Virus record (IMG/VR): IMGVR_UViG_3300010370_000136
Coordinates: 1-32,572 of that record
Direction: 5' to 3' (one strand)
Source: a virus
Length of the DNA stretch: 32,572 bases
Made by a program: the position numbers and the translations under genes. The notes under the pieces are model-generated. The model did not search any database and was not told the origin of the DNA. It worked only from the letters and a program-made list of their open reading frames with translations. Numbering within the stretch: the stretch's first letter is position 1; every line of letters begins with the position of its first letter. Positions 1 through 12,025 of the stretch are shown piece by piece.

Positions 1-32
1 CGGGCAGGGGAGCCGTAGGTACGCGGTCTAGG

Positions 33-52
33 AAAAATCGCACACCTGCGCG
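33..52 (-). terminator. Rho-independent terminator after the HNH gene
   Basis: On the minus strand, 19 bases after the HNH stop codon, CGCGC-AGGU-GUGCG forms a 5-bp stem (one G-U pair) with a tetraloop. It is followed directly by AUUUUUCC. This is the only clear stem plus U-run seen in the window. It would end the DNA-modification transcript and insulate it from the terminase operon if the molecule is circular. The stem is short, so efficiency is uncertain. Confidence 0.6.
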
Positions 53-70
53 TGTCGAGTGCTGGTCTGG

Positions 71-373
71 TCATCTGCGGTGTTCTCTCGCGCCTCGTCG
101 AGAGTTACAGGAGCGGTGCGCTGGTAGTAGGGGTGACGTCGGTTCTCCCGTTAGTACGTGGTCTGCGGTGAACGGGTCGTCTGGTCGTGCTCCTTCGCCG
201 CATATCCAGCAGGCTTCGGCGTTCTCTCTTACTGCTTTCGCTCTGGTCTTATAGGTTCCTTTGTAGTGAGGACGCGTCGCGTTTCGTACTGCTTCTCGTA
301 TCTTCGTACAACCGTCGCACCTGCTGGAGTTCGGCGTTAGTTGTCCGCAGTTTAGACAAGGCTTCTTAATCAT
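71..373 (-). CDS. HNH endonuclease
   Basis: This 100-aa protein carries the HNH (beta-beta-alpha metal) nuclease pattern. Paired cysteines appear at CLNCG and RCDGC near the N-terminus, then CWICGE, a DHV motif and a final HRSCNSRRG. Such small HNH proteins nick or cut DNA and, in many siphophages, sit beside the terminase and assist packaging at cos. Here the gene is last in the transcription unit and overlaps the upstream CmoA-like gene by 4 bases (ATGA). It would abut the small terminase gene if the sequence closes into a circle. It could instead belong to the modification cluster as a modification-dependent nuclease. Family call is firm; the role is inferred. Confidence 0.88.
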   Translation of the reverse strand: MIKKPCLNCGQLTPNSSRCDGCTKIREAVRNATRPHYKGTYKTRAKAVRENAEACWICGEGARPDDPFTADHVLTGEPTSPLLPAHRSCNSRRGAREHRR

Positions 374-1023
374 TTCTCTATTATGAAGCCTGAGAACTCT
401 CCGAATCGAAAGAACTCGTAGTAGACGAACGGGAAGATATCGCGGCTTATAGGTCGCTGGATTCCCGACAGGCTGAGTTCCTTCTGGAGGATTTCGTTCG
501 CGTCTACGCCGCTCGCTACCTTTCCTGCGAGGGTAAGACGGCGGTAGATAGTGCCGATATAGCGAGAGGCGTCTTCGGTTTTATCTACGACGATTAGCGC
601 TCCTCCTACGTTGAGGGTGTCGTAGAGGCGGCGGAGGTAAGGCTTTCGTTCTGCTATCGGGAGGAACATAAGCACGAGGAAGAGCGTCGCGACGTCGAAC
701 GGTTCGTAGTCGTAGTCGAGTACGTCGGCTAGTTCGAAGCGTCCGTATCCGTCGAAGAGTTCCTTCATCTGCGGAGAGTTATCTATAGAGACGGCTTCGC
801 AATTACGCGCTTTCAGGGAATCGGTTAAGAGGCGCGTTATGTTTCCCGTCGAGGCTCCTATGTCGTAGAGCCTTCCGCCTTCGGGGAGGTAGTGCCTAGC
901 GATATGCGCTACGGCTCCTGCTACGAGGTCATAGAAGGGTAACTGTTCCCGTACGTGCCGCTCGAAGCCTGCCGCTACGTTCGCGTTTTTAAACGTCCAG
1001 TCACGGGGTATTTCGAACGTCAC
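370..1023 (-). CDS. CmoA-like SAM-dependent enzyme (carboxy-SAM synthase-like or methyltransferase)
   Basis: This 217-aa class I SAM-binding fold has its motif I at YDIGASTGN (residues 53-61). Several stretches resemble CmoA, which makes carboxy-SAM from SAM and prephenate: DWTF at 8-11 with a following VA..F..H, SIDNSPQM at 79-86, NVGGALIVVDK at 138-148, and a C-terminal FxFGxFxGF segment. The region between the QK motif and the C-terminus is shorter than in E. coli CmoA, and I could not place the CmoA carboxylate-binding arginine. Carboxy-SAM synthesis is therefore not proven; a plain methyltransferase remains possible. It starts with GTG inside the stop of the cytosine methyltransferase (GTGA overlap) and its TGA overlaps the HNH ATG. 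The three products are thus probably made together. Confidence 0.75.
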   Translation of the reverse strand: MTFEIPRDWTFKNANVAAGFERHVREQLPFYDLVAGAVAHIARHYLPEGGRLYDIGASTGNITRLLTDSLKARNCEAVSIDNSPQMKELFDGYGRFELADVLDYDYEPFDVATLFLVLMFLPIAERKPYLRRLYDTLNVGGALIVVDKTEDASRYIGTIYRRLTLAGKVASGVDANEILQKELSLSGIQRPISRDIFPFVYYEFFRFGEFSGFIIEK

Positions 1024-2084
1024 GGAAGCCTCCTAAGTATCTCGTCTCTAATCGTTTCGCCTACGCGCTTCATCATTAGAGGAGGTACGGAACGTCCGAT
1101 TCGTTCGGCTCGTTCGCGATACGTTCCTGTTAGTTCGAAGTCAGCAGGGAACGAACAGAGAGCGCGGAGTTCCCGAAGGTTAAACTTTCGCGGCTCGAAG
1201 GGGTGAGTTACGGACGCGGCTCCTACTACTCCTGCGGTAGCGGTAATCGTTAGGCAAGGCTTAACGGGAGAGACGCGGACGAGATTTAGATACTTACGCG
1301 AGACGACGCCTAGACGTAGGTTCTTGTATTCGCGTCCTATCGCGTAGCGCGTGAAATCTAAGTCTTCTCCTGTCTCAGGGTCGAACCTTCCGACGTGAGC
1401 AGGAATCGAGAGGTATTCGCCTAACGCGTCACGGACGGTAGGACGGGTAGGAAGCGGAGCAGGGAAGACAGGCGCTAGTCCTAAGTCCTCGCGTACTCCG
1501 ACGAAGATAAGGCGCTCACGTTTCTGCGGTACTCCGCACCTAGAGGCGTCTACTATTCGCGCTTCGACGCGATAACCGCAGGAGCGGAGACGGCGAAGAA
1601 TCTCTTTAAAGTATCCGATAGCGGTTCCTACGGTTAAGCCTTTGACGTTCTCTGCGACGAATACCTTCGGCTGGATATCGTTAAGGATTCGAGCGAACTC
1701 AAAAAACAGGTCGTCTGAGCGTTGCGCGGTATCGGAATAGTTACTTACGTTTCCCCACCCGTCTTCGCGTTTACCTGACGTAGAGAACGCGGCGCATGGA
1801 GGAGAGCCTTCGAGAAGGTCTACTTCGTCTAAGCCTGCGAGCGCTAGAAGGTGCTTCCCGTTTATCTCTCGTATATCGGCAGGGCTGATAGGTACGCCGT
1901 CGTGATTAAGACGGTAGGTATCTCGTGCCGCTTCGACGAATTCTGACGCGGCTCGTATCTCGAAGCCTGCCATTTCGAGTCCTAGACAGGAGCCACCACA
2001 GCCAGAGAAAGTAGAGATAGCCGTAAAGCCGTTCGTACCGCGAACACGGCGAACCTCTTCCATAGAAGGAAGTACGAAATCCAT
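1020..2084 (-). CDS. DNA cytosine-C5 methyltransferase with atypical motif X (N to R)
   Basis: The C5-methyltransferase motifs are all present: SAM-binding FSGCGG (residues 26-31), catalytic SPPCAAFS with Cys97, motif VI ENV at 145-147, motif VIII QKRERLIFVG at 187-196, and motif X IGRSVPP with Arg331. The family normally has Asn at that position (IGNAVPP or IGNSVPP), in the cofactor pocket. ATG at 2084 is preferred because it forms a TAATG overlap with the ParB-like gene; an in-frame ATG at 2126 would add 14 residues but overlap 43 bases and lacks a Shine-Dalgarno. The target sequence cannot be read from the protein. A gene for a CmoA-like protein overlaps downstream, which suggests an unusual cofactor (see findings). 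No truncation is visible. Confidence 0.92.
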   Translation of the reverse strand: MDFVLPSMEEVRRVRGTNGFTAISTFSGCGGSCLGLEMAGFEIRAASEFVEAARDTYRLNHDGVPISPADIREINGKHLLALAGLDEVDLLEGSPPCAAFSTSGKREDGWGNVSNYSDTAQRSDDLFFEFARILNDIQPKVFVAENVKGLTVGTAIGYFKEILRRLRSCGYRVEARIVDASRCGVPQKRERLIFVGVREDLGLAPVFPAPLPTRPTVRDALGEYLSIPAHVGRFDPETGEDLDFTRYAIGREYKNLRLGVVSRKYLNLVRVSPVKPCLTITATAGVVGAASVTHPFEPRKFNLRELRALCSFPADFELTGTYRERAERIGRSVPPLMMKRVGETIRDEILRRLP

Positions 2085-2581
2085 TACGTCGTCGAGCCGC
2101 TCCACTCGTAGCCGCACTTCGGACATTTATGTTCGGTAGCCAAATCGGTATCGACGGTAGGGAACGCGTCAGGAATTTCGTTTTCGATATCGGAAATAAT
2201 CTCGTCGAGAGCGTCGCCGTCGAAGAGCGTTCCTGAAAGTTCGAGCGGAGTAGCGGCGAGTTCTTCCAGAATCTCTTTAAGAACGTTCGAGTCGTAAGTA
2301 GCGAGGTCGTTAGCGCGGTTATCTGCGAGCAGGATACGAAGCGCTCTATCATCGTCGCAGTCGATAAAGCCCACTTCGATATCGTTCCAGCCAAGAAGTT
2401 TCGCGGCTTTAAACGTATGATTCCCTGCGAGAATAAAGTTCGTTTCCTGCTGAACGACGAGCGGACGATACTGACCGTTCTCGCGGAGGCTTTCGCTAAT
2501 CGCGCCTACGTCTCCCTGACGAGCGTTCTTAGGGTGAGGCTTTAAGTCGTCTACTGATACTCGTTCGTATCTAATTTCCAC
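2084..2581 (-). CDS. ParB-like nuclease-domain protein
   Basis: The N-terminal ~100 residues form a ParB/sulfiredoxin-like domain: VSVDDLKPHPKNAR near residues 8-21, SLRENGQYRPLVV, then AGNHTFKAAKLLGW with the GNHxxxAA motif, and LLADNRAND. The C-terminus has a single CPKCGYEW pair, as in a half zinc ribbon. Proteins of this kind often sit beside phage DNA methyltransferases; some act as nucleotide-dependent DNA-binding or modification partners. Its stop overlaps the methyltransferase start (TAATG), so coupling is expected. GTG at 2581 follows AGGAG by 6 bases, and that Shine-Dalgarno lies in a hairpin (2586-2604). Domain call is firm; nuclease activity is not established. Confidence 0.88.
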   Translation of the reverse strand: MEIRYERVSVDDLKPHPKNARQGDVGAISESLRENGQYRPLVVQQETNFILAGNHTFKAAKLLGWNDIEVGFIDCDDDRALRILLADNRANDLATYDSNVLKEILEELAATPLELSGTLFDGDALDEIISDIENEIPDAFPTVDTDLATEHKCPKCGYEWSGSTT

Positions 2582-2585
2582 TTCT

Positions 2586-2604
2586 CGCTCCTTCGATAGG
2601 AGCG
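2586..2604 (-). promoter_or_regulatory. Hairpin sequestering the ParB-like gene ribosome binding site
   Basis: On the minus strand, CGCTCCT-ATCGA-AGGAGCG forms a 7-bp stem with a 5-base loop. The 3' arm contains the AGGAG Shine-Dalgarno six bases before the GTG start. Folding would hide the ribosome binding site of the first gene in the modification cluster. The element lies in the mRNA 5' end that ribozyme copy 1 would generate. Confidence 0.6.
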
Positions 2605-2622
2605 AAATGGTATCAGACTTTT

Positions 2623-2672
2623 AGCCTCTTCAGTAGCGGCACTACCGCTAGACGCCTCGCGGCGTTTCGGCT
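2623..2672 (-). ncRNA. Type II hammerhead ribozyme, copy 1
   Basis: Read on the minus strand: helix II 5' arm AGCC, core GAAAC, helix III GCC-GCGA-GGC with a GNRA loop, cleavage triplet GUC, helix I UAGCGG-UAGUG-CCGCUA (6 bp), core CUGAAGA, then helix II 3' arm GGCU. All invariant hammerhead core bases are present. The order, with helix II open, is the type II permutation. Cleavage is predicted between 2651 and 2650, after the C of GUC. It lies between the 49-aa gene and the ParB-like gene, 6 bases after the stop. Confidence 0.93.
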
Positions 2673-2678
2673 TCCTGC

Positions 2679-2828
2679 TTACTTTAAGCCGCAGGCGATA
2701 AGGAACTTCTCGCGGTCAAAACGCGGATTATCGTCCTCGAAGATATCCATAAGCATTTCGACAAGAACGACGATATCCGTTCCCTTCGAAATCGCCTTAG
2801 CGATTTTCTCGTAGTGCTTCCTAGTCAT
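2679..2828 (-). CDS. Small protein of unknown function (49 aa)
   Basis: I do not recognise this protein. The chosen ATG at 2828 follows a strong AGGAGG six bases upstream; a longer in-frame ATG at 2927 would run through ribozyme copy 2 and into the preceding gene and is rejected. The product is charged and mostly helical, with an amphipathic segment GTDIVVLVEMLMDIF in the middle. It sits between two hammerhead ribozymes (copy 2 upstream, copy 1 downstream), so its mRNA would be released as a single-gene fragment. Confidence 0.75.
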   Translation of the reverse strand: MTRKHYEKIAKAISKGTDIVVLVEMLMDIFEDDNPRFDREKFLIACGLK

Positions 2829-2853
2829 ATTTCCTCCTCTTCGATTTCCGACG

Positions 2854-2903
2854 AGCCTCGTCAGGAGCGGCGATACCGCTCGACGCCTCGCGGCGTTTCG
2901 GCT
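2854..2903 (-). ncRNA. Type II hammerhead ribozyme, copy 2
   Basis: Minus strand: AGCC, GAAAC, GCC-GCGA-GGC (GNRA-capped helix III), GUC, helix I GAGCGG-UAUCG-CCGCUC (6 bp), CUGACGA, GGCU. Helix I differs from copy 1 at its first pair (G-C instead of U-A), a compensatory change, and the variable base of CUGANGA is C rather than A. Cleavage is predicted between 2882 and 2881. The last A of the upstream gene's UAA stop codon is the first base of helix II. The Shine-Dalgarno of the 49-aa gene follows at about 20 bases. Confidence 0.95.
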
Positions 2904-3460
2904 TAATACTTTCCTGTACCTCCGCAACGGTTACACGTCCAGCCCGTGAAATTCCATTTATCTGAACCGCCAGCGCCTCCGCAACGAGGACATTTATCCT
3001 CGTCCTTCCACGTCTGGAGAGATTCGCGGCGAAGGCGAGCGTCGGTACGACGAGTCAGTTCGTTACGGACGTCCGTAATCTGCTCCCACGTCATTTCGTT
3101 AAGAGCGATATCGGCTCCGACAACTTTTCGAATTACTGCTTCGAGCGAACGAACACGAGCCTCTTCCGCCGCCGCGACGAGTCCGCCGTTTACGAGGTCG
3201 AGACGAACCTTCTCGCGAACGGTAGCGAGTTCCTCCGCCTCGTGCTTCTGCTCTTCCGCGAAAACTTCGGCGGCACTTGCGAACGAGAATCCGAAACGCT
3301 TATTAAATTCGTTCAGACAGTAGAACGTACGTCCGCTCTTCTCGTTCATCTGCTTCCATACAGGTTCGGAGCAGAATACGTAGCCGCCGTCGTAGAAGCC
3401 TTCGCCAGCCTCGACGCTGACGGAGCATACGGAGCACGTTCCGCGATATCGGTTATTCAT
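2903..3460 (-). CDS. Zinc-ribbon protein of unknown function
   Basis: This 185-aa protein has an N-terminal CSVCS pair with a further Cys near residue 30, a charged helical middle (about residues 65-150) and a C-terminal DnaJ-like double zinc knuckle, CPRCGGAGG and CNRCGGTGKY. The CxxCxGxG knuckles suggest metal-stabilised binding to nucleic acid or protein, but I cannot name a function. It is the first gene after promoter 3490-3519 and has an excellent GGAGGA site before its ATG. Its stop codon is fused to ribozyme copy 2. Cleavage there would separate this leading cistron from the modification cluster. Confidence 0.8.
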   Translation of the reverse strand: MNNRYRGTCSVCSVSVEAGEGFYDGGYVFCSEPVWKQMNEKSGRTFYCLNEFNKRFGFSFASAAEVFAEEQKHEAEELATVREKVRLDLVNGGLVAAAEEARVRSLEAVIRKVVGADIALNEMTWEQITDVRNELTRRTDARLRRESLQTWKDEDKCPRCGGAGGSDKWNFTGWTCNRCGGTGKY

Positions 3461-3489
3461 AGGTTCCTCCTCGTTAATTCGTTAAGACG

Positions 3490-3519
3490 AGTCTAAGGTG
3501 GCTCCCGTAGGCGAGTCCA
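3490..3519 (-). promoter_or_regulatory. Sigma-70-like phage promoter A
   Basis: Minus strand: -35 TGGACT (3519-3514), 18-base spacer, -10 TAGACT (3495-3490). It shares the extended -35 TTCTGGAC and the spacer end GCCACCT with the stronger promoter at 8103-8131, and both lie about 30-45 bases before a gene start. Upstream, a CACCGTA/TACGGGTG hairpin precedes an A-run. It would drive 3460 to 71. Confidence 0.6.
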
Positions 3520-3550
3520 GAACCTCTTTTTCACCCGTAAATACGGTGTT

Positions 3551-4018
3551 TTAGTCGTATACGGGATTCGTCAGCAGGTCGAAAACGTCCGCCGCCTCTA
3601 GGAGCCAGCCGCGAGAAGGATTATCAGAGTGAGCCGCGAAAATCTTCTTCGTCGTCGCATTAAAGCGCTCCGAATTCTTTCGAAGATATCTCTTTAGGCG
3701 TCCTACTTCGATAGCGACGAACGCGCCTGATTCTCCTTCGAGCGCATAAACGTAAATCCACCATTTAGCCGTCGTGACGTTAATTCCAGAAGGCTTCCAG
3801 ACGGATTCGTTTAAATCGAGTTCCTGAAGTGCTCGTATAGGCGCTTGGTGCGTCTCGATTACCATACGTCCGTTGCGGTATCTATCTGTTTTAACTTCGA
3901 ACGCGCCGCTAGAGAGCGCTCGCAGAAAAGCAGTAACGAACGCTTCGCCTTCTTCGCCGTCTTTTAGGTCACGGACGAAATTAAAGCGCTCTAAATCGAA
4001 CGACGGCTGGTAAGCCAC
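3551..4018 (-). CDS. Putative PD-(D/E)XK-type nuclease-like protein
   Basis: This 155-aa protein has a GEEGEAFVTAFL helix near residues 22-33, then a strand FEVKTDRY (about 59-66) and NGRMVIETH. The early Glu, the E-V-K triad and the following polar strand resemble the core of PD-(D/E)XK nucleases and Holliday junction resolvases. A clear upstream Asp is not identified, so the call is tentative. The start is GTG, overlapping the TAG of the upstream zinc-ribbon gene (TAGTG). Nothing indicates truncation. Alternative: an unrelated alpha/beta protein. Confidence 0.5.
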   Translation of the reverse strand: MAYQPSFDLERFNFVRDLKDGEEGEAFVTAFLRALSSGAFEVKTDRYRNGRMVIETHQAPIRALQELDLNESVWKPSGINVTTAKWWIYVYALEGESGAFVAIEVGRLKRYLRKNSERFNATTKKIFAAHSDNPSRGWLLEAADVFDLLTNPVYD

Positions 4019-4179
4019 TATTCCTGCTCTACTTTTTCCATTTCGAAAACGCGGTTCGTATGTCGCTCAGGATTTGAGCACGTAGGAGGCGTAGAGACGC
4101 GAACGTAAAGCGTAAGAGCGCGATTACAAGACGGACATACGAAGACTTCTCGAAACGCCGCTTTACGTTCATTATTCAT
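4018..4179 (-). CDS. Small zinc-ribbon protein (53 aa)
   Basis: CPSC, then a Cys about 15 residues later in a PTCSNPERHTNR context, suggests a small metal-binding ribbon. The same pattern (CxxC, Cys-x-N-P-x-x-H) occurs in the 51-aa gene at 12854-13009, so the two are probably paralogues. ATG at 4179 is chosen because it makes an ATGA overlap with the upstream gene; a longer in-frame start at 4209 would overlap 34 bases. Function unknown. Confidence 0.72.
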   Translation of the reverse strand: MNNERKAAFREVFVCPSCNRALTLYVRVSTPPTCSNPERHTNRVFEMEKVEQE

Positions 4180-4391
4180 ACCCTTCGACAGTAGACGGGT
4201 GGCGACCACGTTCGCTCGACTAGCGGACGCGTCGCGATAGCCATAGTTCCGTCATTCGCAAGCCATACCAGAAGTTCTACGTAACTATCTCCTACGTCAG
4301 AATCAGGTAGGCGGCACTTCCAGCGACAGTAACCGTCGCTATCCGCGAGAAGCGTCGTAAAAAGCGGTTCGGGAACTTCGGCGTCAGTCAT
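4176..4391 (-). CDS. Hypothetical protein (71 aa)
   Basis: I do not recognise this acidic, beta-rich 71-aa product, which contains two cysteines in YCRWKC. The ATG follows GGAAAAAAG and overlaps the end of the 28-aa membrane ORF by 8 bases; its own TGA overlaps the next ATG. This coupling pattern supports it as a real gene. Confidence 0.65.
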   Translation of the reverse strand: MTDAEVPEPLFTTLLADSDGYCRWKCRLPDSDVGDSYVELLVWLANDGTMAIATRPLVERTWSPPVYCRRV

Positions 4392-4470
4392 CTTTTTTCC
4401 GAAAGAGAAGACGCGGCAGTAACGCGACGAGCACTCCGCAGACGAAGTAAATCGTTACGAAGAGTTTCAT
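4384..4470 (-). CDS. 28-aa single-span membrane microprotein
   Basis: The frame starts MKLFVTIYFVCGVLVALLP and ends in RKKDD, giving one hydrophobic helix with a positive, charged C-terminus. Its ATG overlaps the stop of the upstream coiled-coil gene (TAATG), and its TGA lies 8 bases inside the next gene, so it fills the gap exactly. That placement is the main evidence. The role is unknown; small phage membrane proteins of this size can act in lysis regulation or exclusion. Confidence 0.6.
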   Translation of the reverse strand: MKLFVTIYFVCGVLVALLPRLLFRKKDD

Positions 4471-4685
4471 TAGAGTTCGACACCCTGCTGAAGGTGAATA
4501 CGAAGCCTGTCTACCGTTGCGAGAGCGTCGCGGAGCGCCTGCCTCGTTTTCGCTAACTCTTCCTTTACCTCTTCGAGGAAACGTCGCGCTTCGTCGCGCT
4601 CCTCGCGAAGAGTCTCGTTCGCCGTCGATAGGTCAGAGACGCGGCTCTGTTCCATAATTAGTTCGGCTCTTAGGTTGTCGGTCAT
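4470..4685 (-). CDS. Coiled-coil protein (71 aa)
   Basis: Nearly the whole protein is a predicted coiled coil with leucine heptads and runs of Glu, Arg and Lys (for example LREERDEARRFLEEVKEEL). I recognise no family. Its ATG overlaps the TGA of the 44-aa gene (ATGA) and its TAA overlaps the 28-aa membrane ORF. It may oligomerise or tether one of its neighbours. Confidence 0.65.
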   Translation of the reverse strand: MTDNLRAELIMEQSRVSDLSTANETLREERDEARRFLEEVKEELAKTRQALRDALATVDRLRIHLQQGVEL

Positions 4686-4816
4686 TTCTTCTCCTTCTTT
4701 CGTTTGGATATTTCTTCTCTTAACTCTTTAATAATCAGGTCTAGTTCGTCTTCTAAGTCGCGTCGGACGACGTAGTGAAGTAGTTCGACTATTCGAATTA
4801 GCGTCGAAGTTTTCAT
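4682..4816 (-). CDS. Small charged helical protein (44 aa)
   Basis: The frame begins MKTSTLIRIVELLHYVVRR and ends in a lysine-rich helix KRKKEKK. AAAGGAA lies 5 bases upstream of ATG and the TGA overlaps the next gene's ATG (ATGA). The product is amphipathic and probably helical. No family is recognised. It begins 15 bases downstream of the tRNA-like RNA. Confidence 0.6.
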   Translation of the reverse strand: MKTSTLIRIVELLHYVVRRDLEDELDLIIKELREEISKRKKEKK

Positions 4817-4830
4817 TAGTTCCTTTCTCG

Positions 4831-4894
4831 TTCCCGTACCGCGAATCGAACGCGGCTCTGCGAAGGGGAAGCACAGAGACTACCTGTTACGGGA
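4831..4894 (-). tRNA. tRNA-like RNA lacking a D stem
   Basis: Minus strand: a perfect 7-bp acceptor stem UCCCGUA/UACGGGA, a T arm of 5 bp (CCGCG/CGCGG) with the canonical UUCGAUU loop, and a discriminator A. Between them lie only 32 bases: unpaired ACAGGUAGU, which keeps the GG of a D loop, and a 7-bp arm CUCUGUG/CGCAGAG with a 9-base loop. A standard D stem and 7-base anticodon loop cannot be formed. At 64 bases it is about 10 short of a normal tRNA. CCA is not encoded. It may be a degenerate or D-armless tRNA or a tmRNA-like mimic; the amino acid cannot be assigned. Confidence 0.6.
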
Positions 4895-4902
4895 TTTCTC
4901 GC

Positions 4903-5904
4903 CTAGCGGAAATTGGCGAGAACTTTAAGCGCTTCGATATCTGCCGCGCCTGTTTTACCTGTTAGAGCGTCGAGGTAGTTACGCTCCGCGAGTACCGTTC
5001 CTCCGCGAGTAGGACGGAAGTGGTGGCGGTAGGTGTTTACCGCTTGGAGCACTCCGTACGCCGTTCCCTTCCAAGGTGTTACGCGCTCGTCGTTCGTCCA
5101 GAGGTTGCGGAGAATCGAACGAGTATTTTCGGCTCGCGTAATCGCCTGTTGCGCGTCTTTCTCAGGAGTAGGAACGTACTTCGCTACGAATTTCTCGTAG
5201 TGCTTATCCGATACTTTCTGCGAAAGGAGCGCTTCGAGTTCACGCTGGAAGTCGTCCGCCATAGTGTGAACGACGTTAAGCGCGGTTCTCGCGTCCTGTA
5301 GACGGAGCGACGAGTTAGCCGTATGTCGAACGGTGTACGCCTCGCCGTCTTCTCGAAGTGCCGCGTCTCGCGTGTTATCGCAGACGACGATAGTTACCGT
5401 CCGCTTATACGTCGTCGCAATACTTCCGTTAAACGAGGTCGTCGCGAGAAGGTTTGGACGGAACTCTACGCCGCCTGCTCCTTTCACGTTCTCTGGCATT
5501 TCGACCTGAACGAAGGCGATAGCGCCGCCTTTCAGGACGCCTGCGGAGCCAATGGAAAGGTCGTCGTCGAGAATATTCGAGACAGCACCTAGAAGAACGT
5601 CGTCGTACTGGTGCGGCGCGTATCTGCTCGACGGAACTCCTAACACTTCGTAGGAATCGTCGCGGATAATCGCCTTACGGTTCGGAACTTCGACGTATCC
5701 GTTCGGAGACTTTACGTACATCGTCTCCTCTACTGCTTTCCACGAGAAGAGGCGTCGTCGGACGTCTTCGAGCGGAATCGCGCCGTCGTAGTGATTCGGT
5801 TCTTCGCTCTGAAGGTCAGCGCGATAGTGCCAAGCGTTACCGCGCTTCTCCGTGAAGCCGATAAGCATATTTTTATTCAGGTAGTCGAGAGTTTCGCGAC
5901 TCAT
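4903..5904 (-). CDS. DUF932 family (phage/plasmid-like) protein
   Basis: This 333-aa protein resembles the DUF932 or phage/plasmid-like family: an N-terminal region with YEVLGVPSSRYAPHQY (about residues 84-99), a central LKGGAIAFVQVEMPE, and the C-terminal feature GTAYGVLQAVNTYRHH (about 281-296). The family is common on phages and plasmids next to replication or defence genes, but its biochemical role is unknown. Length fits the family. The ATG overlaps the stop of the upstream membrane protein by one base. The stop lies 8 bases before the tRNA-like RNA. Confidence 0.8.
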   Translation of the reverse strand: MSRETLDYLNKNMLIGFTEKRGNAWHYRADLQSEEPNHYDGAIPLEDVRRRLFSWKAVEETMYVKSPNGYVEVPNRKAIIRDDSYEVLGVPSSRYAPHQYDDVLLGAVSNILDDDLSIGSAGVLKGGAIAFVQVEMPENVKGAGGVEFRPNLLATTSFNGSIATTYKRTVTIVVCDNTRDAALREDGEAYTVRHTANSSLRLQDARTALNVVHTMADDFQRELEALLSQKVSDKHYEKFVAKYVPTPEKDAQQAITRAENTRSILRNLWTNDERVTPWKGTAYGVLQAVNTYRHHFRPTRGGTVLAERNYLDALTGKTGAADIEALKVLANFR

Positions 5905-6110
5905 TAGTTTCTCCTTCTGTCGGTTTTAATTAGGTTGTAGGTAAGAGCGCCTGTAATCGAAATAAAGAACACGAATCCTTCAGGCGAGGGAATCGGCTCC
6001 GTTCCTTCTGCTTCTAAGCCACCAGCGCAAGCGAGTGCTCCGAAGAACGCGATAACGGTTACGACGAGTTTCGTCCTCGTCCACCGTTGCCAGTTCGTTA
6101 CGTGAATCAC
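5904..6110 (-). CDS. Two-span membrane protein (68 aa)
   Basis: Two hydrophobic segments are visible, LVVTVIAFFGALACAG and FVFFISITGALTYNL, separated by an acidic loop, with a basic C-terminus KTDRRRN. The GTG start lies in a GTGA overlap with the upstream gene. The layout would suit a holin- or exclusion-type protein, but it is far from the lysis cassette. Function unknown. Confidence 0.65.
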   Translation of the reverse strand: MIHVTNWQRWTRTKLVVTVIAFFGALACAGGLEAEGTEPIPSPEGFVFFISITGALTYNLIKTDRRRN

Positions 6111-6322
6111 GGAAGAACTACCTCCTTCTCCTCGTAGGAGAGAAGAACGGCTTCGGCGTCGAGTGTGACGTAATCGAGCGGCGTAGCCATTGGGAAGTGC
6201 TTATGTTCCTCGCAAGGGTCGCCGTAATCGGGAACGACGAAACGAACCGTAAGTTCGTAAATTCGCATTACCCGTACGTTCGGCTCTTCTTCGTCGAGCG
6301 GTCTAATAAACGGTTTATTCAT
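6107..6322 (-). CDS. Hypothetical protein (71 aa)
   Basis: An acidic small protein of no recognised family with a single Cys and a histidine pair in CEEHKHF. AAGGAGAAT precedes the ATG. It is the first gene after the 190-base non-coding gap with the long stem-loop, and overlaps the membrane protein gene by 4 bases. Confidence 0.65.
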   Translation of the reverse strand: MNKPFIRPLDEEEPNVRVMRIYELTVRFVVPDYGDPCEEHKHFPMATPLDYVTLDAEAVLLSYEEKEVVLP

Positions 6323-6431
6323 TTAATTCTCCTTCTCTAGGTACTTATAGGTTTACGATATTTCGAGGGTGTAGTGGGGTATTTCCTGCTCCTTTCGTTA
6401 GTCGTTTCTTTTAGAACTTCTCTAGGAGGCT

Positions 6432-6485
6432 CTAAGAGCGCCGTAGGCAGGGGAAAGCCTTCTACGGCTCCTACGGCGCTCCTAG
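6432..6485 (-). ncRNA. Strong 16-bp stem-loop in a 190-base non-coding gap
   Basis: Between genes at 6322 and 6513 no start codon opens a frame. Minus-strand arms 6485-6470 and 6447-6432 pair over 16 bp with one G-U pair (CUAGGAGCGCCGUAGG with CCUACGGCGCUCUUAG). The 22-base loop holds a small AGCC/GGCU hairpin. No U-run follows, so an intrinsic terminator is unlikely. It could be an RNase processing site, a stabilising structure or a small RNA. Confidence 0.6.
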
Positions 6486-6512
6486 CGGCTCTAGGACGCT
6501 TCTCCGCGCCTC

Positions 6513-6743
6513 CTACGCCTTCCTAGCCCACGCGATAATGGCGGCTTTCTCCTCGTCTGTCGCGTTACGAAACGCCACCTTCGCTACTTCGCGCTTACGA
6601 AGAATCTCGTAGAGATAACGTAAGCCTTCGCGAGCCGCTTCGATATCGCCGTTCGTCTCGTCGTCGTCTTCCGCGTCCCACTCGTCGATTCCTCTTCCTG
6701 CCGCGTTAATAAGTGCCTCTAGGCGTCGAGTCGAAAGCCTCAT
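6513..6743 (-). CDS. Hypothetical acidic helical protein (76 aa)
   Basis: The ATG at 6743 is chosen because it overlaps the upstream TGA (ATGA) and follows GAGGAGG; a longer in-frame start at 6872 would lie deep inside the upstream gene. The product has an acidic centre (DEWDAEDDDETNGD) and two helices. No family recognised. The stop lies about 30 bases before the long stem-loop. Confidence 0.68.
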   Translation of the reverse strand: MRLSTRRLEALINAAGRGIDEWDAEDDDETNGDIEAAREGLRYLYEILRKREVAKVAFRNATDEEKAAIIAWARKA

Positions 6744-7066
6744 TTCGTAACCTCCTCGTCCTGAAACATAAGGTCGAAAAGCGCCGTTACGGAGTGCTGA
6801 GTTCCGAATTCTTCTCTTGCGTCGTTCAGCATTTCGTAGTGGTGCCAGAACTCCTCGCGGATTTCGAGCCACGACATTTCGGACGAATCGTAAAGTCCTC
6901 CGCAGAGTTCGAGAAGTTCCCAGACTTCCTTTCCTTCTTCGTCGGTAATCCCTTCGAACTCCGAACCGTCGTACGGCTCGCGGAGCACTATCGCGACGGA
7001 ATCCTTCAGGCGGACTCCCTGCGTCTTAACTCGAAGACGCGCTTCGTAATCGGTTTCGTACAGCAT
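6740..7066 (-). CDS. Hypothetical acidic protein (108 aa)
   Basis: I do not recognise the family. The protein is acidic and helical, rich in Glu and aromatic residues (WLEIREEFWHHYEML). ATG at 7066 forms a TAATG overlap with the preceding gene and follows GGAGGTGA; an in-frame ATG 21 bases further upstream is less likely. It lies in a run of coupled small early-type genes. Confidence 0.68.
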   Translation of the reverse strand: MLYETDYEARLRVKTQGVRLKDSVAIVLREPYDGSEFEGITDEEGKEVWELLELCGGLYDSSEMSWLEIREEFWHHYEMLNDAREEFGTQHSVTALFDLMFQDEEVTK

Positions 7067-7638
7067 TAGGCGCTCACCTCCTGCCATACTGCTTCGCGGA
7101 CGATAAGAGTAAGCGCTTCGATTACGTCGAGCGGCAAGTTACGAAGCGGCGTATCAGAGTGAATATACGAAGCCTCACCTGTAACTTCGACGGCGAGCGT
7201 ATTAAGTGCTGACGTAAGAGAGTTAAGAGCAGGCTTAACGACGTCTTCGTAGTGCTTCTCCTGACGCGCTTTCTCTTCGCGGCGAGCCTTACGAATCGTT
7301 TCTTCTCTCTCTAGGCGCTCTGTTATTTCCTGCTTCGCCTGCTCGTAAGGAGCGCGGATAAGACGGGCAGGAACGATACGGAACTTACGAGTCGCAACGC
7401 CGCGATAAACGTCGTCGTAACTTACGAGGATTCCCTGACCGCCAGACGTCTTACGGAAATCCGCGAGGTCAGTCGAATTGCCGACGTAGTAGCCGTGTCG
7501 CCAAATTCCTTCGTACGAGTGCTCGACGTCTTCGACGCGAACCTTCGCCTCAGTGCTGTTATTCCAATACGAAACTTCGTCGAGCGGCGTAGCGCTCGTG
7601 AAGTATTCCTTTCCTACTTGGAGTTCTTTCCTTTTCAT
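7066..7638 (-). CDS. Hypothetical protein with coiled coil (190 aa)
   Basis: Residues 1-95 look like a beta-rich domain beginning MKRKELQVGKEYF; residues about 96-135 form a charged coiled coil (ERLEREETIRKARREEK); the rest is helical. A short SH3-like or tudor-like fold is conceivable for the N-terminus but not shown. AGAAGGAA precedes the ATG. Ribozyme copy 3 lies just upstream, so this is the first gene on the downstream cleavage product. Confidence 0.68.
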   Translation of the reverse strand: MKRKELQVGKEYFTSATPLDEVSYWNNSTEAKVRVEDVEHSYEGIWRHGYYVGNSTDLADFRKTSGGQGILVSYDDVYRGVATRKFRIVPARLIRAPYEQAKQEITERLEREETIRKARREEKARQEKHYEDVVKPALNSLTSALNTLAVEVTGEASYIHSDTPLRNLPLDVIEALTLIVREAVWQEVSA

Positions 7639-7668
7639 TTCCTTCTCCCTCTGTTTAGTTTTCCGACG

Positions 7669-7718
7669 AGCCTCGTCAGTAGCCGCGATACGGCTAGACG
7701 CCTTGCGGCGTTTCGGCT
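7669..7718 (-). ncRNA. Type II hammerhead ribozyme, copy 3
   Basis: Minus strand: AGCC, GAAAC, GCC-GCAA-GGC, GUC, helix I UAGCCG-UAUCG-CGGCUA, CUGACGA, GGCU. Compared with copies 1 and 2, a helix I pair is swapped from G-C to C-G on both sides, a true covariation, and the helix III loop changes GCGA to GCAA while staying GNRA. Predicted cleavage is between 7697 and 7696. The last A of the upstream UAA stop is the first base of helix II, as in copy 2. Confidence 0.95.
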
Positions 7719-8059
7719 TACTCCCAAGTAATGAAGCCCGAAGGAGCGACGTAGGAAGGACTACCCATAGAGACGAGTTCCTTCTTCGAATACACCTCTT
7801 CGCGCTTGTAGACGCAGAGGACGAATCCGTTATACGGCTCTACGAAGAACTCGTTCTGAGCGTCGTTGTAGTAAGCGGCGAATTGAATAGCCCACTCGTA
7901 GTCTCCGCCTTCCCAGTGAATTTCTTGGCAAGTCGTCGAGCCGCTAAAGAAGTATTCCTTATCCGCGACGTATGGCAAGTCTTCGCGGTTCGCCCAGAAG
8001 CGGCGCTTTACTGCTGTCGCTACTTTCTTGGCTTCCTGCTTCGTTGGCTTCTTATACAT
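7718..8059 (-). CDS. Hypothetical protein, first gene after promoter B (113 aa)
   Basis: The N-terminus is basic and helical (KKPTKQEAKKVATAVKRRF), followed by a beta-rich, aromatic domain. I recognise no family. GGAGGA precedes the ATG. It is the leading cistron behind the best promoter in the window, and ribozyme copy 3 is fused to its stop codon, the same arrangement as the zinc-ribbon gene at 2903-3460. Confidence 0.7.
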   Translation of the reverse strand: MYKKPTKQEAKKVATAVKRRFWANREDLPYVADKEYFFSGSTTCQEIHWEGGDYEWAIQFAAYYNDAQNEFFVEPYNGFVLCVYKREEVYSKKELVSMGSPSYVAPSGFITWE

Positions 8060-8102
8060 TTCGTTTCCTCCTCTTAAGTAATCGGCTTATTCCGATACCT
8101 CA

Positions 8103-8131
8103 AATATAAGGTGGCGAGGAGCACCTGTCCA
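8103..8131 (-). promoter_or_regulatory. Sigma-70-like phage promoter B (strong)
   Basis: Minus strand: -35 TGGACA (8131-8126), exact 17-base spacer, -10 TATATT (8108-8103). Both boxes differ from the consensus at one position. The start point would fall near 8096, about 37 bases before the ATG at 8059. The -35 box overlaps one arm of a CACCTGT inverted repeat. Confidence 0.75.
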
Positions 8132-8159
8132 GAACTCGTTTTTCCCTTTAAAACAGGTG
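8122..8159. repeat. Inverted repeat at promoter B, possible operator
   Basis: CACCTGT at 8122-8128 covers part of the -35 box; its inverse ACAGGTG is at 8153-8159, inside the dyad AAAACA-GG-TGTTTT (8150-8163). The same word within AAACA-CC-TGTTT recurs at 13064-13075 in the AT-rich gap. Placement over the -35 box suggests repressor binding; an RNA hairpin is the alternative. Confidence 0.4.
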
Positions 8160-8166
8160 TTTTCGG

Positions 8167-8664
8167 CTAAGAGCAGGAGACGAGCCACGGCTTCCAGCCG
8201 CACCCGTTTACCTCTTCCGAATAGCGGAAAATCGTAAGCGCCGCGAGGAGATTCGTACGCGGTTCGAAAAGTTCGTTTCGATTCTTCAGCACGTTCTGAG
8301 TCTGGAGATATCCGCGAGGGTAGTAAGTCGTTTTCGAAGTCCAGAAGTAATTTATTTGAGTTAAGCCTGCGCTTCCGCCGTTCGGGTCTAGCGCGTTAAA
8401 TGCTTTAGGAAGACAACGCGACTCACGGTGAATTACGTAATCGAGTTTAGAAAGATTCTCTTCTTTCCAGCCAACCTCGCGAGCGAGATTCCACCAGCCT
8501 CCGCAATAAGCGTCAGTAGGAACGGGAAGCGTCGTCGTCGTGCTCGTAGTGCTCGTAGTATCTGTAGGACGGCGACGAGCAGGCTCCGCGAGGGGAGCGC
8601 TTGCGGCTTCCGTAACGGAGAGAAGCGCTACAACTATGGCTAGTCCTAATCCGAAAAGTTTCAT
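8167..8664 (-). CDS. Secreted lytic transglycosylase-like lysozyme
   Basis: Residues 1 to about 22 form a signal peptide (basic start, hydrophobic core, Ala-rich cleavage region). A Thr/Ser linker follows near residues 36-45. The catalytic domain has HRESRC with the likely catalytic Glu81, GSAGLTQIN at 97-105 and a C-terminal NLLAALTIFRYS, which is the lysozyme/SLT goose-type pattern. It would cleave the glycan strands of peptidoglycan outside the membrane, without needing a holin. The gene overlaps the HTH gene by 4 bases, far from the lysis cassette at 14.7-15.9 kb. It may act in release from without or at late infection. Confidence 0.82.
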   Translation of the reverse strand: MKLFGLGLAIVVALLSVTEAASAPLAEPARRRPTDTTSTTSTTTTLPVPTDAYCGGWWNLAREVGWKEENLSKLDYVIHRESRCLPKAFNALDPNGGSAGLTQINYFWTSKTTYYPRGYLQTQNVLKNRNELFEPRTNLLAALTIFRYSEEVNGCGWKPWLVSCS

Positions 8665-9461
8665 TTCGTGCCTCGTTTCGAGTGCTCGACTCGTTCGCGG
8701 AAATACCTCAACGCGGTTTCGAGTTCTTCAGTCGGTCTGTGCGCTAGTAAGGCTACTACGTCTTCTTCCGTTTTTCCTGTTAGGAACAGAGCGGCAACCG
8801 TCGAAAGAGTCGAGTCGTACTTGACGTATAACGGATTAACTAAAGGCTTCAGTTCCTGCTCTTCGAGTTCGTCGAGGTATCTTCCCTGATTAAGCCACGT
8901 AGCAGGGTGACAGAAGTATTTAGCGTCGGCTACGGAGCGCTTATATCGCTCGACTGACGCTAGGAACTCGTCGAACTTCGGAGCGTCTTCCTTTTCGAAG
9001 ATTCGTTTAAAGGAACGGAAGGCGGCAGACTTTCCAACGCGTCGCGGATACGTCTTCCAAAACGCTTCGAAATTAGCAGTCAATATTGACGGTTCTTGAC
9101 GGTTCTTTATATAGGAGTCGTTTACGTCGGAGTTACGCCTTTCTGTCGTCGTAGTTACGCCTTTCTCTAAAACGGGATTCTCTAAAGGCTCCTTCGTAGT
9201 TACACCTTTAAGCACGTATTCAGAACGGTGTCCTCTTCCGTTACCACGCTCGACGACCTCTAATAAGCCGCTCTTAACGAGTTCTTTAATAACGAGACGA
9301 ACGTACGTATCCGTACAACGTGCTTTTCTTGCGAGCGTCTTCTGCGACGGGAAACAGTACCCTTCGTCATTCGCGAAATCCGCGAGCGCAAGGTGTATTA
9401 GTAACTTCTCGCCGCGATACGGAGAGCGCTCCCAAACGTGCGTTATCCACCTAATCGACAT
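8661..9461 (-). CDS. HTH replication-initiation-like protein
   Basis: This 266-aa protein opens with a winged helix domain of the phage replication type: EKLLIHLALADFANDEGYCFPSQKTLARK, then a recognition helix region TYVRLVIKELVKSGLLEVVERGNGR (to about residue 76). The middle is low in structure. Residues about 128-165 contain FEAFWKTYPRRVGKSAAFRSFKRIF, a motif common in phage O-like and DnaD-like initiators. It would bind the origin and recruit host replication proteins, since no polymerase or helicase gene is visible here. ATGA overlap with the secreted lysozyme gene. Confidence 0.78.
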   Translation of the reverse strand: MSIRWITHVWERSPYRGEKLLIHLALADFANDEGYCFPSQKTLARKARCTDTYVRLVIKELVKSGLLEVVERGNGRGHRSEYVLKGVTTKEPLENPVLEKGVTTTTERRNSDVNDSYIKNRQEPSILTANFEAFWKTYPRRVGKSAAFRSFKRIFEKEDAPKFDEFLASVERYKRSVADAKYFCHPATWLNQGRYLDELEEQELKPLVNPLYVKYDSTLSTVAALFLTGKTEEDVVALLAHRPTEELETALRYFRERVEHSKRGTK

Positions 9462-9484
9462 ACTTCCTCCTTCTCCTCTTTCAG

Positions 9485-9943
9485 TTATTTCAGTAGGTCT
9501 AAAGCACCTAAAAGCGTTCGGAACTCCGATAATCGAATTAAAACTATTCCGTCCGTCGTCTCGTCAGGCATAGCGACCATTACGAAAGGTCGAGTATCGC
9601 CTACCGCTTTCGACTGCTTCGACTGATTCTCCGCCGCATAGAAGCGCGTCGCAATAGGAGACACCTGCGCTCCAGCCTTCACTTCGAGCCGTAAGTATCC
9701 TGCCCAATGCTCCTCGTGACGGCTATTCGCGCCTGCGATACCTAGCGCCTTACGTGCTCTACGAGCCTTCGAGTCGCCTTTACTTCGATTCCGCTTACCT
9801 CGCGCCGCAGGGTCGTTACAGCCGCGTATTCGCCGCTTACCGTCTCTCGCAGGACGTCCTAACGTGCCGAAGAGCGGACAGTTCGGTTCCTTACACTTCT
9901 CGCGATTACCTTCACAGTAATCCTTCTCTTTAAGAAGCGTCAT
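9485..9943 (-). CDS. Holliday-junction-resolvase-like nuclease (putative)
   Basis: The N-terminus has CEGNREKCKEPNCPLFG, a cysteine cluster that may bind zinc. Residues about 80-120 contain HEEHWAGYLRLEVKAG with an E-V-K triad and a following Gln-rich helix (ENQSKQSKA), typical of small PD-(D/E)XK resolvase-like phage proteins. It would process recombination or replication intermediates. The ATG overlaps the WhiB stop (ATGA). The basic linker (residues 30-70) fits DNA binding. The family is not certain. Confidence 0.6.
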   Translation of the reverse strand: MTLLKEKDYCEGNREKCKEPNCPLFGTLGRPARDGKRRIRGCNDPAARGKRNRSKGDSKARRARKALGIAGANSRHEEHWAGYLRLEVKAGAQVSPIATRFYAAENQSKQSKAVGDTRPFVMVAMPDETTDGIVLIRLSEFRTLLGALDLLK

Positions 9944-10191
9944 TTAGTTACCTTCGCTCGCCGTACTTTTCTTTCATAAATGCGTTCAGCAGGAGTTAAG
10001 CCGCCGAATACACCCCACCTATCTTCGAACGGTTCGAGCCGTATAACGAGACTAAGACACGCTTCTTTTTCGGTACACGTCGCGCATACTGCTTTCGCCG
10101 CGTCAAATCTCTTTTCACTAACGCCTCGTGGAAAGAAAATTTCAGCCTTTAAGTTCCTACAGGCGGCGCGTTCCTGCCACCTAAGACTCAT
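9940..10191 (-). CDS. WhiB-family transcription regulator
   Basis: The 83-aa protein has the four iron-sulfur cysteines of WhiB proteins (Cys11, Cys36, Cys39, Cys45; the last three as CATC and KEAC) and a GVFGG turn (60-64; usually GVWGG) followed by LTPAER and a basic tail. WhiB proteins bind a 4Fe-4S cluster and act with the host primary sigma factor. They are essentially limited to Actinobacteria and their phages; a mycobacteriophage copy is known to affect host division and superinfection. ATG at 10191 is preferred over an in-frame TTG at 10209. The likely role is to redirect host transcription. Confidence 0.92.
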   Translation of the reverse strand: MSLRWQERAACRNLKAEIFFPRGVSEKRFDAAKAVCATCTEKEACLSLVIRLEPFEDRWGVFGGLTPAERIYERKVRRAKVTK

Positions 10192-10384
10192 AGCGAATCG
10201 TCTCACCAATAGGAAAGTGTTCTTCTATCTCCCTGTTTATTTCTTTCCGTTTATAGACGTACTTGCGAAGCGTTTCGAGAGAGAGTCGTTCCGTACCGTC
10301 GAAACGAACTACGTCTTCTGCGGCACGAAAAAGACCAGCCTCTATTAGTGCTCGCTCGTAAAGAAGATTAGAAAGGCTGTTCAT
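10181..10384 (-). CDS. Hypothetical helical protein (67 aa)
   Basis: A small, helical, charged protein with no recognised family. It overlaps the Erf-like gene by 17 bases and the WhiB gene by 11, and AGAGGACG precedes its ATG. Its position between a recombination mediator and WhiB suggests an early function; nothing more can be said. Confidence 0.6.
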   Translation of the reverse strand: MNSLSNLLYERALIEAGLFRAAEDVVRFDGTERLSLETLRKYVYKRKEINREIEEHFPIGETIRYES

Positions 10385-11009
10385 CGGATACGTCCTCTAC
10401 TTTCTCAGCCATAAGTGCGGTTATTACTTTCGACGCTTCGACTTTAGTAATCGCCGTAGCCGTCTTAGTCGTATCTTCGAGGAGCACCTGAACGAACTGG
10501 TCGATATTCGCTACGTTCTTTTCCTTAGCGAGTTTCTTAATCAGCCCTAGTTGCGCGGACGAAGCCGACGAGGAGAGAGCGGTTACGGACGCTCCTTCGC
10601 TCTTCGCCTGCGTACGAGGCTTATACGGCGTCTTAGGTGCTTCCTTTGCGGCTTCCTCTGTCTGACGGTTACGAACCTCTTCGAGCGACGCGACTCGTTG
10701 CGTATCGGCTACGAGTAGAGCGACTATGGCTCTTCCCCACGCGCTCGTCTCCGCGTTCATTACTTCGGAGTCACGCGTAAAGTTCGTCTTACCTACCGCA
10801 GGCTCCGCCGCTACTGCTACTGCTGGAAGCGTGTCCTCTGGCGAACGGTACGCCGCCGCCGTGTAAATAATAAATTCGCGTCCGCCGATTTCCATAACAC
10901 GGAAAGGTTCAGCAGGATTAAACGGACGAAGACACCCGTTCGGGTACTTCGCTCGAAACTCGCGAATACGCTCCGCTACGTCTACGTAGCCTTCCATTGA
11001 GTAACTCAT
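10368..11009 (-). CDS. Erf-like single-strand annealing or ssDNA-binding protein with SSB-like tail
   Basis: The first ~105 residues include YIDVAERIREF-like start, FIIYTAAAY, and SEVMNAETSAWGRAIVALL, resembling the core of Erf/Sak-type annealing proteins (xETSAxGRAxxxL). A Lys/Pro/Ser-rich linker follows (about 118-150), then a helical domain. The protein ends SDEQPF, like the acidic tip of SSB that recruits host repair enzymes. It precedes the resolvase and lies just downstream of the YqaJ exonuclease, a typical exonuclease-annealase pair. The exact annealase family cannot be fixed by eye. Confidence 0.65.
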   Translation of the reverse strand: MSYSMEGYVDVAERIREFRAKYPNGCLRPFNPAEPFRVMEIGGREFIIYTAAAYRSPEDTLPAVAVAAEPAVGKTNFTRDSEVMNAETSAWGRAIVALLVADTQRVASLEEVRNRQTEEAAKEAPKTPYKPRTQAKSEGASVTALSSSASSAQLGLIKKLAKEKNVANIDQFVQVLLEDTTKTATAITKVEASKVITALMAEKVEDVSDEQPF

Positions 11010-11021
11010 TTCCTTCTCTCC

Positions 11022-11969
11022 TTATCGGTAAGTCCGCATAACGCGGAACGGTTTACTTTCTTTCTGGTATTTCTCGAAGACGTCAGGACACTCCTCTTGG
11101 AGTCTCTTCGCGTCTAGCGACTTTCTTCCCTGCTGTTCTTTCCACGAGATAACGCGAACGCCGTTAATCGTTCCTTCGTCGTTATCTAAGAGAAGACGAG
11201 CGAGTTCGTCCTTTACCTGCTTCTCTATCTGCTCCGCCTCTTTCGCCATAGTGCGAGCGTGGTCGAGTTCTTCGAGAAGCGTCGCCGCGTTCGACGGAAG
11301 TTCGATAGTCGTTCCCTTCGACGGGAAGAGCCGCGCTATCTGCTCCGCGTCGAACTCTTCGACGGAGCCGTTATACGGTTCGCCGTTATCGACGAGCGCT
11401 CCTAGACGTTCCGCTTCGCTAAGAAGCGTTTCTAGGAGAGCGTCGTTCTTCGGAAGTTCGAAGAGTCCGATATTGTCTCGCGAGTCGTGAACGATAAAGA
11501 AGACGGGAGCGCCTGTAAGGAAGCGTTCGATTTCTCCCTGTGCGAGCCACTCTGAAGGGAAGTCTTCTACGCCGCGAATCGAATAGCGGCTTGTGTGCTT
11601 CGCCTCGACAACGACGGACGGATTCTCTACGTTGTCTACCGCGTCGAGCGAACCGCTCCAGCGCTGACGACGATAAACGACGTCGGGTGTTACGAGCGAC
11701 TGCGAGAGCAGGCGAGACGCTTCGCTAACTAGGACAGGCTCGACGAGCGTTCCCCACCTCATAGCGCCGTTCGGTTCGACGACGATAGGAGCCGTCGCCT
11801 TTTCGTAGTAGAGGTCTGCGCGTGTCTTGTATTTCGAAAGTCCGATTAGTGCTCCAGCGTCAGACGCGCCGAAGGTACAACGAGAGAACTCGTCGCGCCA
11901 ACGGTTAAGAAGCCACTCCGTACTTCCGTGTTCGCTCTTCGGACTAAGCCGTAGTTCGTGCTGTTTCAT
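11022..11969 (-). CDS. YqaJ-like viral recombination exonuclease
   Basis: The 315-aa protein matches the YqaJ/lambda exonuclease pattern: FGASDAGALIGLSKYKTRADLYYEK (about residues 33-57), RWGTLVEPVL with the conserved Glu, SGSLDAV (catalytic Asp) and VVVEAKHTS (E-x-K). These are the PD-(D/E)XK residues that resect double-stranded ends 5' to 3'. The C-terminal ~80 residues form a coiled coil plus KSLDAKRLQEE. It partners the Erf-like protein encoded 12 bases downstream. A promoter-like sequence (11997-12025) precedes it. Confidence 0.87.
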   Translation of the reverse strand: MKQHELRLSPKSEHGSTEWLLNRWRDEFSRCTFGASDAGALIGLSKYKTRADLYYEKATAPIVVEPNGAMRWGTLVEPVLVSEASRLLSQSLVTPDVVYRRQRWSGSLDAVDNVENPSVVVEAKHTSRYSIRGVEDFPSEWLAQGEIERFLTGAPVFFIVHDSRDNIGLFELPKNDALLETLLSEAERLGALVDNGEPYNGSVEEFDAEQIARLFPSKGTTIELPSNAATLLEELDHARTMAKEAEQIEKQVKDELARLLLDNDEGTINGVRVISWKEQQGRKSLDAKRLQEECPDVFEKYQKESKPFRVMRTYR

Positions 11970-11996
11970 TACTGCTCCTTCTCTAGGTTCCTTCGA

Positions 11997-12025
11997 GTAT
12001 TACGTGGGGGTGTTACAGAGTGCCA
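11997..12025 (-). promoter_or_regulatory. Promoter-like sequence C before the recombination genes
   Basis: Minus strand: TTCTGGCAC (-35 region TGGCAC, 12025-12020), 17-base spacer, -10 TAATAC (12002-11997). The TTCTGG word and its distance to the -10 box match promoters at 3490-3519 and 8103-8131. The -35 box alone is poor, so this rests on the shared motif. It would drive 11969 downwards. Confidence 0.45.

What the first reader, a model, noticed from the sequence alone, without database searches (positions are those of the whole stretch)
2623..2672. Hammerhead ribozyme between the 49-aa gene and the modification cluster
All core bases (GAAAC, GUC, CUGAAGA) and three helices are present in the type II order. 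Cleavage between 2651 and 2650 would leave the ParB-methyltransferase-CmoA-HNH mRNA with a 5' helix I hairpin followed by the Shine-Dalgarno hairpin at 2586-2604. Self-cleavage would thus create the mRNA of the modification system.
Basis: partly seen in the sequence, partly recalled or inferred. Interest (0 to 1): 0.85.

Follow-up and report, generated by a model that had tools for sequence, protein, structure and literature searches.

The report
Self-cutting RNA between phage genes
The phage carries three tiny self-cutting RNAs (hammerhead ribozymes) exactly at gene boundaries, which most likely chop one long viral message into separate gene messages; such ribozymes are known in phages, but two of these three also carry a conserved built-in hairpin that would switch the ribozyme off right after (or instead of) cutting, which I did not find described.

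Summary
Confirmed: 2672-2623 (minus strand) is a type II hammerhead with every core base, three helices, and C17 at 2651 (cut 2651|2650). It falls below Rfam's RF02276 threshold and lacks the typical loop I-tail pseudoknot. All three sit between a stop codon and the next gene. Homologues in related phage contigs show 8 pairs with double-sided changes; chance is excluded. Hundreds of similar ribozymes in IMG/VR sit at gene boundaries; 94% of the short-stem-I class follow an ORF stop within 60 nt, and often the stop codon's last base forms the outer pair of stem II (UAG with C, UAA with U). Phage hammerheads processing polycistronic mRNA were proposed in 2011. What looks new: about 30% of short-loop type II hammerheads, including two of the three here but not the reported one, carry a downstream strand complementary to the catalytic CUGANGA, covarying with N7 (C-G 53, U-A 29, A-U 2; Fisher 1.6e-20, 3e-15 non-redundant). 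It predicts an anti-core hairpin exclusive with the active fold. The ribozyme is not tied to the methyltransferase module: ParB homologues of 54-65% identity lack it there. No cleavage was measured.

The parts
2623..2672 (-). Reported type II hammerhead: II 2672-2669/2626-2623, GAA 2668-2666, III 2665-2652, C17 2651 (cut 2651|2650), I 2650-2634, CUGAAGA 2633-2627
2854..2903 (-). Second hammerhead, between the 185-aa and 49-aa genes; C17 at 2882, cut 2882|2881; UAA stop 2905-2903 gives the outer A of stem II
7669..7718 (-). Third hammerhead, between the 113-aa and 190-aa genes; C17 at 7697, cut 7697|7696; UAA stop 7720-7718 gives the outer A of stem II
2848..2864 (-). Anti-core hairpin CUGACGA-GGC-UCGUCGG (7 bp) of the second hammerhead, exclusive with stem II
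7663..7679 (-). Anti-core hairpin CUGACGA-GGC-UCGUCGG (7 bp) of the third hammerhead
2615..2627 (-). Weaker alternative hairpin AGGCU-AAA-AGUCU at the reported copy, would sequester the 3' arm of stem II; no covariation support
2578..2610 (-). Hairpin covering the Shine-Dalgarno sequence and GUG start of the ParB-like gene
   Evidence: single-sequence folding
2651..2881 (-). 231-nt RNA that two cuts would release, carrying the 49-aa gene (2828-2679)
   Evidence: inferred from cut sites

Best explanation
The element is one of three short-loop type II hammerhead ribozymes that cut the phage's polycistronic transcript at gene boundaries. Each upstream mRNA would end in the stem III hairpin with a 2',3'-cyclic phosphate just after its stop codon; each downstream mRNA would begin with a 5'-OH on the stem I hairpin just ahead of its ribosome-binding site. 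In two of the three (and about 30% of the class) the next nucleotides transcribed pair with the catalytic strand CUGANGA, forming a second hairpin next to stem I. This would displace the only helix (stem II) holding the two products together, making the cut irreversible, or disable a ribozyme that has not cut in time. Shown: motif, covariation, position, N7-tail covariation. Inferred: cleavage, mRNA ends, locking role.
For: Core and helices; 1 chance hit in 300 shuffles against 3 found; 98.9% of cells paired, 8 pairs with double-sided changes, 0/500 shuffles as high. Without requiring pairing, 312 database hits pair at 95-98% in stem I positions 1-6 and 86-97% in inner stem III. 300 of 318 short-class ribozymes follow an ORF stop within 60 nt; 114 have the stop fused to stem II, UAG with C 81, UAA with U 26; antisense control in the first set 22% against 80%. 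Anti-core of at least 6 bp: 98 of 320 against about 12 expected; long-loop class 2 of 94 against 3.5 expected; N7 mutual information 0.86 bits against at most 0.13 for control positions; Fisher 3e-15 non-redundant. Folding of growing transcripts: stem II probability 0.995 at +5 nt falls to 0.001 at +11 nt in both anti-core copies. Precedent: tandem phage/prophage hammerheads cleave in vitro and in E. coli (PMC3088659).
Against: No cleavage data for this class here. The reported copy itself lacks the anti-core strand and lacks the consensus loop I-tail pseudoknot, whose shortening cut the rate 20- to 100-fold in a tested type II ribozyme, so its speed in cellular Mg2+ is unknown. Two thirds of the short class have no anti-core strand, so it is optional. 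The anti-core fold is thermodynamically preferred, so it could keep the ribozyme off in vivo, where downstream competitors can block ribozyme assembly (PMC2817708).
Confidence: 0.75

Rival explanations
1. The anti-core hairpin is a pre-cleavage off-switch gated by translation: a ribosome terminating at the stop codon fused to stem II covers AGCCGAA, stem II cannot form, the anti-core hairpin forms, and the mRNA stays whole; without upstream translation it is cut.
For: Stop codon abuts or overlaps stem II in most members; the anti-core fold wins thermodynamically.
Against: Close packing of stop codon and ribozyme may be mere compactness; members without anti-core have nearly the same stop spacing (0.66 against 0.77 at -9 to -5); no translation data.
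Confidence: 0.25
2. Paired hammerheads release RNAs that are circularised (viroid or retrozyme style), here a 231-nt circle with the 49-aa gene, by religation at a chimeric ribozyme formed by its two ends.
For: AGCC and GGCU are shared between copies, so the two ends of the 2881-2651 fragment can pair; the two-ribozyme arrangement around this gene is kept in L004, L354, L355, L356.
Against: The anti-core hairpin at its 5' end would oppose ligation; circles were sought and not found for tandem prophage hammerheads.
Confidence: 0.05
3. The repeats are transcription terminators, protein-binding DNA repeats or chance hairpins and not ribozymes.
For: They are G+C-rich hairpins between genes.
Against: No U-tract and no terminator match at these sites; the unpaired core GAA, C17, CUGANGA is kept while paired bases covary.
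Confidence: 0.03

Closest known systems
Type II hammerhead ribozyme (Rfam RF02276; Perreault et al. 2011, PMC3088659), including tandem phage/prophage arrays
   Same: Core, helix order, C17 cleavage site, intergenic phage position, multiple copies flanking genes, proposed mRNA processing.
   Different: Short loop I (mostly G-U-N-A-N-G-C), no loop I-tail pseudoknot, below the Rfam cut-off in this window; frequent fusion to the stop codon; optional anti-core strand covarying with N7. I could not inspect their supplementary alignments.
RiboJ insulator (engineered; hammerhead plus 23-nt hairpin before the RBS; PMC7536230, PMC6206723)
   Same: Hammerhead followed at once by a hairpin and then the RBS, giving a defined 5' end; in E. 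coli it raises transcript and protein levels.
   Different: Engineered; not type II (from own knowledge); its hairpin was added to help folding, whereas the natural one here overlaps and would disable the core.
HF1/HF2 halovirus HHphage (PMC3088659)
   Same: Hammerhead just upstream of a phage gene, mRNA 5' end mapped within 3 nt of the cleavage site.
   Different: Core variant, archaeal virus, single site.

Membership tests
Hammerhead ribozyme | Core G12A13A14, A15.1-U16.1, H17, C3U4G5A6N7G8A9 | tested here: met
   GAA, A-U, C17, CUGAAGA; siblings CUGACGA
Hammerhead ribozyme | Helices I, II, III supported by covariation | tested here: met
   (8 double-sided pairs, all three helices); one search unbiased set
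Hammerhead ribozyme | Self-cleavage 3' of H17 giving 2',3'-cyclic phosphate and 5'-OH | not testable with these tools
   no experiment possible
Type II hammerhead (RF02276) | Stems I and III closed by loops, stem II open | tested here: met
Type II hammerhead (RF02276) | Score above the Rfam gathering cut-off (37 bits) | tested here: not met
   siblings 19.7 and 20.4 bits, reported copy not listed; many relatives do pass. The cut-off is practical, not a structural definition
Type II hammerhead (RF02276) | Loop I-tail pseudoknot (typical of most, not all, type II) | tested here: not met
   at most 2-bp matches here; short class 17 against 16.1 expected, long class 85 against 45.4

The most novel reading that the evidence does not exclude
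A widespread phage subclass of type II hammerheads carries a self-disabling strand: the RNA transcribed just after the ribozyme pairs with the catalytic strand, covaries with the free position N7, and either locks the products apart after cleavage or times a cut-now-or-never decision, coupled to termination of translation at a stop codon built into stem II.
Probability: 0.55. Interest if true: 0.72.

Novelty: new variant of a known kind. Interest (0 to 1): 0.52.

Why it matters
Why phages keep hammerheads between genes has been an open question since 2011. The stop-codon fusion and the N7-covarying anti-core hairpin give concrete, testable handles: these ribozymes are built into gene ends, and many carry a conserved means to stop or lock themselves. 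If right, it shows a natural, widespread equivalent of ribozyme insulators and a simple co-transcriptional RNA switch without ligand or protein.

Tried and rejected
Rfam mir-1204, MIR395, U7 and HIV-1 SL4 matches in the window are far below their cut-offs and were dismissed. A loop I-tail pseudoknot at the three copies: at most 2 bp, rejected. An anti-stem II hairpin as a general rule: 14 against 12.8 expected, rejected as a class feature. Promoters or terminators at the sites: no more than in shuffles. A special tie to ParB/methyltransferase: rejected. Nucleotide relatives of window 1-12000 among named phages: none. My first stem I statistics were circular because the scanner required pairing, so they were repeated without that requirement. 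One sequence in the ParB set (L355 at 2708, the same as L010 at 3089) matched the scanner inside a coding region with weak stems and is taken as chance.

Full report
OBSERVATION. The minus strand at 2672-2623 reads AGCC-GAA-ACGCC GCGA GGCGU-C|UAGCGGU AGU GCCGCUA-CUGAAGA-GGCU: a type II hammerhead with intact core and C17 at 2651. Two sibling copies lie at 2903-2854 and 7718-7669. A simple scanner (core plus stems of at least 4/4/3 bp) finds these three, and one site in 300 dinucleotide shuffles of the window. Rfam gives no match at its gathering score and only sub-threshold type II matches to the siblings. A model built from 13 local homologues scores the three copies at 77-79 bits and nothing else above about 15 (the copies are part of the model).

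CONSERVATION. Near relatives in IMG/VR (L004, L354/L006, L355/L010, L356/L005, L008, and more distant L371, L372) keep ribozymes; L004, L354, L355 and L356 keep the pair around the 49-aa gene. Aligned, 98.9% of cells pair, 8 of 16 pairs show double-sided changes, 0 of 500 shuffles reach this, and sliding the pairs destroys it. At the very locus reported, stem I of L356 differs from the window by compensated changes (UAGCGG/CCGCUA against GAGCCG/CGGCUC). Whole-record searches give 3 ribozymes in the window, 3 in the 30.6-kb relative, 2 good and 1 weak in the 30.7-kb relative, and 11 in a 67.6-kb phage contig.

CONTEXT. The window is a siphophage-like genome (terminase, portal, head, tape measure), with weak similarity of one putative tail protein to Pontimonas phage phiPsal1 (32% identity), whose held stretch shows no hammerhead to the scanner. 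All three ribozymes are sense to the genes and lie between a stop codon and the next ribosome-binding site. In two of them the UAA stop abuts GCC so that its last A is the outer base of stem II; in the reported copy the stop is 6 nt further up. In 318 short-class ribozymes from the fetched loci, 300 follow an ORF stop within 60 nt and 114 have the stop exactly fused to stem II, with UAG facing C (81) and UAA facing U (26). The A at the middle of that stop is conserved also where there is no stop triplet (159 of 181), so the ribozyme's own 5' flank lends itself to being used as UAG/UAA.

TWO CLASSES. Type II hammerheads with long loop I show the published loop I-tail pseudoknot (85 against 45.4 expected); the short class (stem-loop I of 17-20 nt, as here) does not (17 against 16.1). 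Instead, 98 of 320 short-class members have at least 6 bp between CUGANGA and the tail within 22 nt, against about 12 in shuffled tails; the long class has none above chance. The base facing N7 covaries: C-G 53, U-A 29, A-U 2, U-G 2, mismatches 4; after removal of similar sequences C-G 36, U-A 24, A-U 2, U-G 2, mismatches 4, Fisher 3e-15. Control positions show mutual information of 0.04-0.13 bits against 0.86 for N7. The tail motif starts at varying offsets (4-14 nt), which argues for several origins. The copies at 2899 and 7714 have the full 7 bp (CUGACGA-GGC-UCGUCGG, with a U-G pair; L005 and L008 have UCGUUAG, with a G-U pair instead), which fits RNA pairing better than a DNA palindrome. 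The reported copy has N7 = A and no anti-core strand; it has only an AGGCU-AAA-AGUCU hairpin without comparative support.

MECHANISM. N7 has no pairing partner in the active hammerhead (established knowledge of hammerhead structure), so N7-tail covariation points to a second, inactive state. Energies: active secondary structure -21.3 and -23.3, anti-core -25.6 and -28.0 kcal/mol for the two copies; the reported copy prefers the active fold, -21.6 against -15.6. With growing transcripts, stem II probability is 0.995 when 5 nt after the core are out and 0.001 at 11 nt, a window of a few nucleotides. These are secondary-structure energies without tertiary contacts. In a type II hammerhead only stem II holds the products together, so the anti-core hairpin would eject the upstream mRNA and leave two adjacent hairpins at the new 5' end. 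I judge this post-cleavage lock more likely than a translation-gated off-switch, but downstream competitors can block ribozymes in vivo (PMC2817708), so the two are not resolved.

KNOWN AND NEW. Perreault et al. (PMC3088659) described type II hammerheads, clusters flanking prophage genes, cleavage of tandem arrays in vitro and in E. coli, and the idea of processing phage transcripts into gene-length mRNAs. So the reported element is a member of a known kind and its proposed role is not new. I found no paper in the held library on the short-loop class, the stop-codon fusion or the anti-core strand, but the library is partial and supplements could not be read. RiboJ (PMC7536230, PMC6206723) is the closest engineered analogue.

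LIMITS. The genome contigs set added only two N7-tail cases, both U-A. Relatedness was reduced by a difference threshold, not by a tree. No RNA data exist here.

Noticed in passing
window 2610-2578 (-): A 13-bp hairpin covers both the Shine-Dalgarno sequence and GUG start of the ParB-like gene; sequence kept in L004, L354, L355 and mostly L356, so its translation may be controlled.
   Followed up: partly
L129 (Streptomyces phage Paedore) 413-474, 1118-1183, 2515, 3333, 3633-3695, 6001-6063: Several type II hammerheads between consecutive genes of a cultured, annotated phage, none of them annotated.
   Followed up: partly
record of L029 (G006) 2576-7558: Eleven hammerheads within about 5 kb of one 67.6-kb phage contig, one at nearly every gene junction.
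   Followed up: partly
L457 (Singulisphaera sp. GP187): Six type II hammerheads within 8 kb of a planctomycete isolate chromosome, probably a prophage.
   Followed up: no
short-class set: Loop I is mostly G-U-N-A-N-G-C and an A often flanks stem II on both sides, suggesting a fixed loop I-stem II tertiary contact that replaces the pseudoknot.
   Followed up: partly
L010 4221 / L355 1576: The sibling upstream of the 49-aa gene has A instead of C at position 17 (GUA), still a permitted cleavage triplet.
   Followed up: no
window 2828-2679 (-): 49-aa protein flanked by two hammerheads, with weak relatives in Streptomyces phages (38-39% identity).
   Followed up: partly
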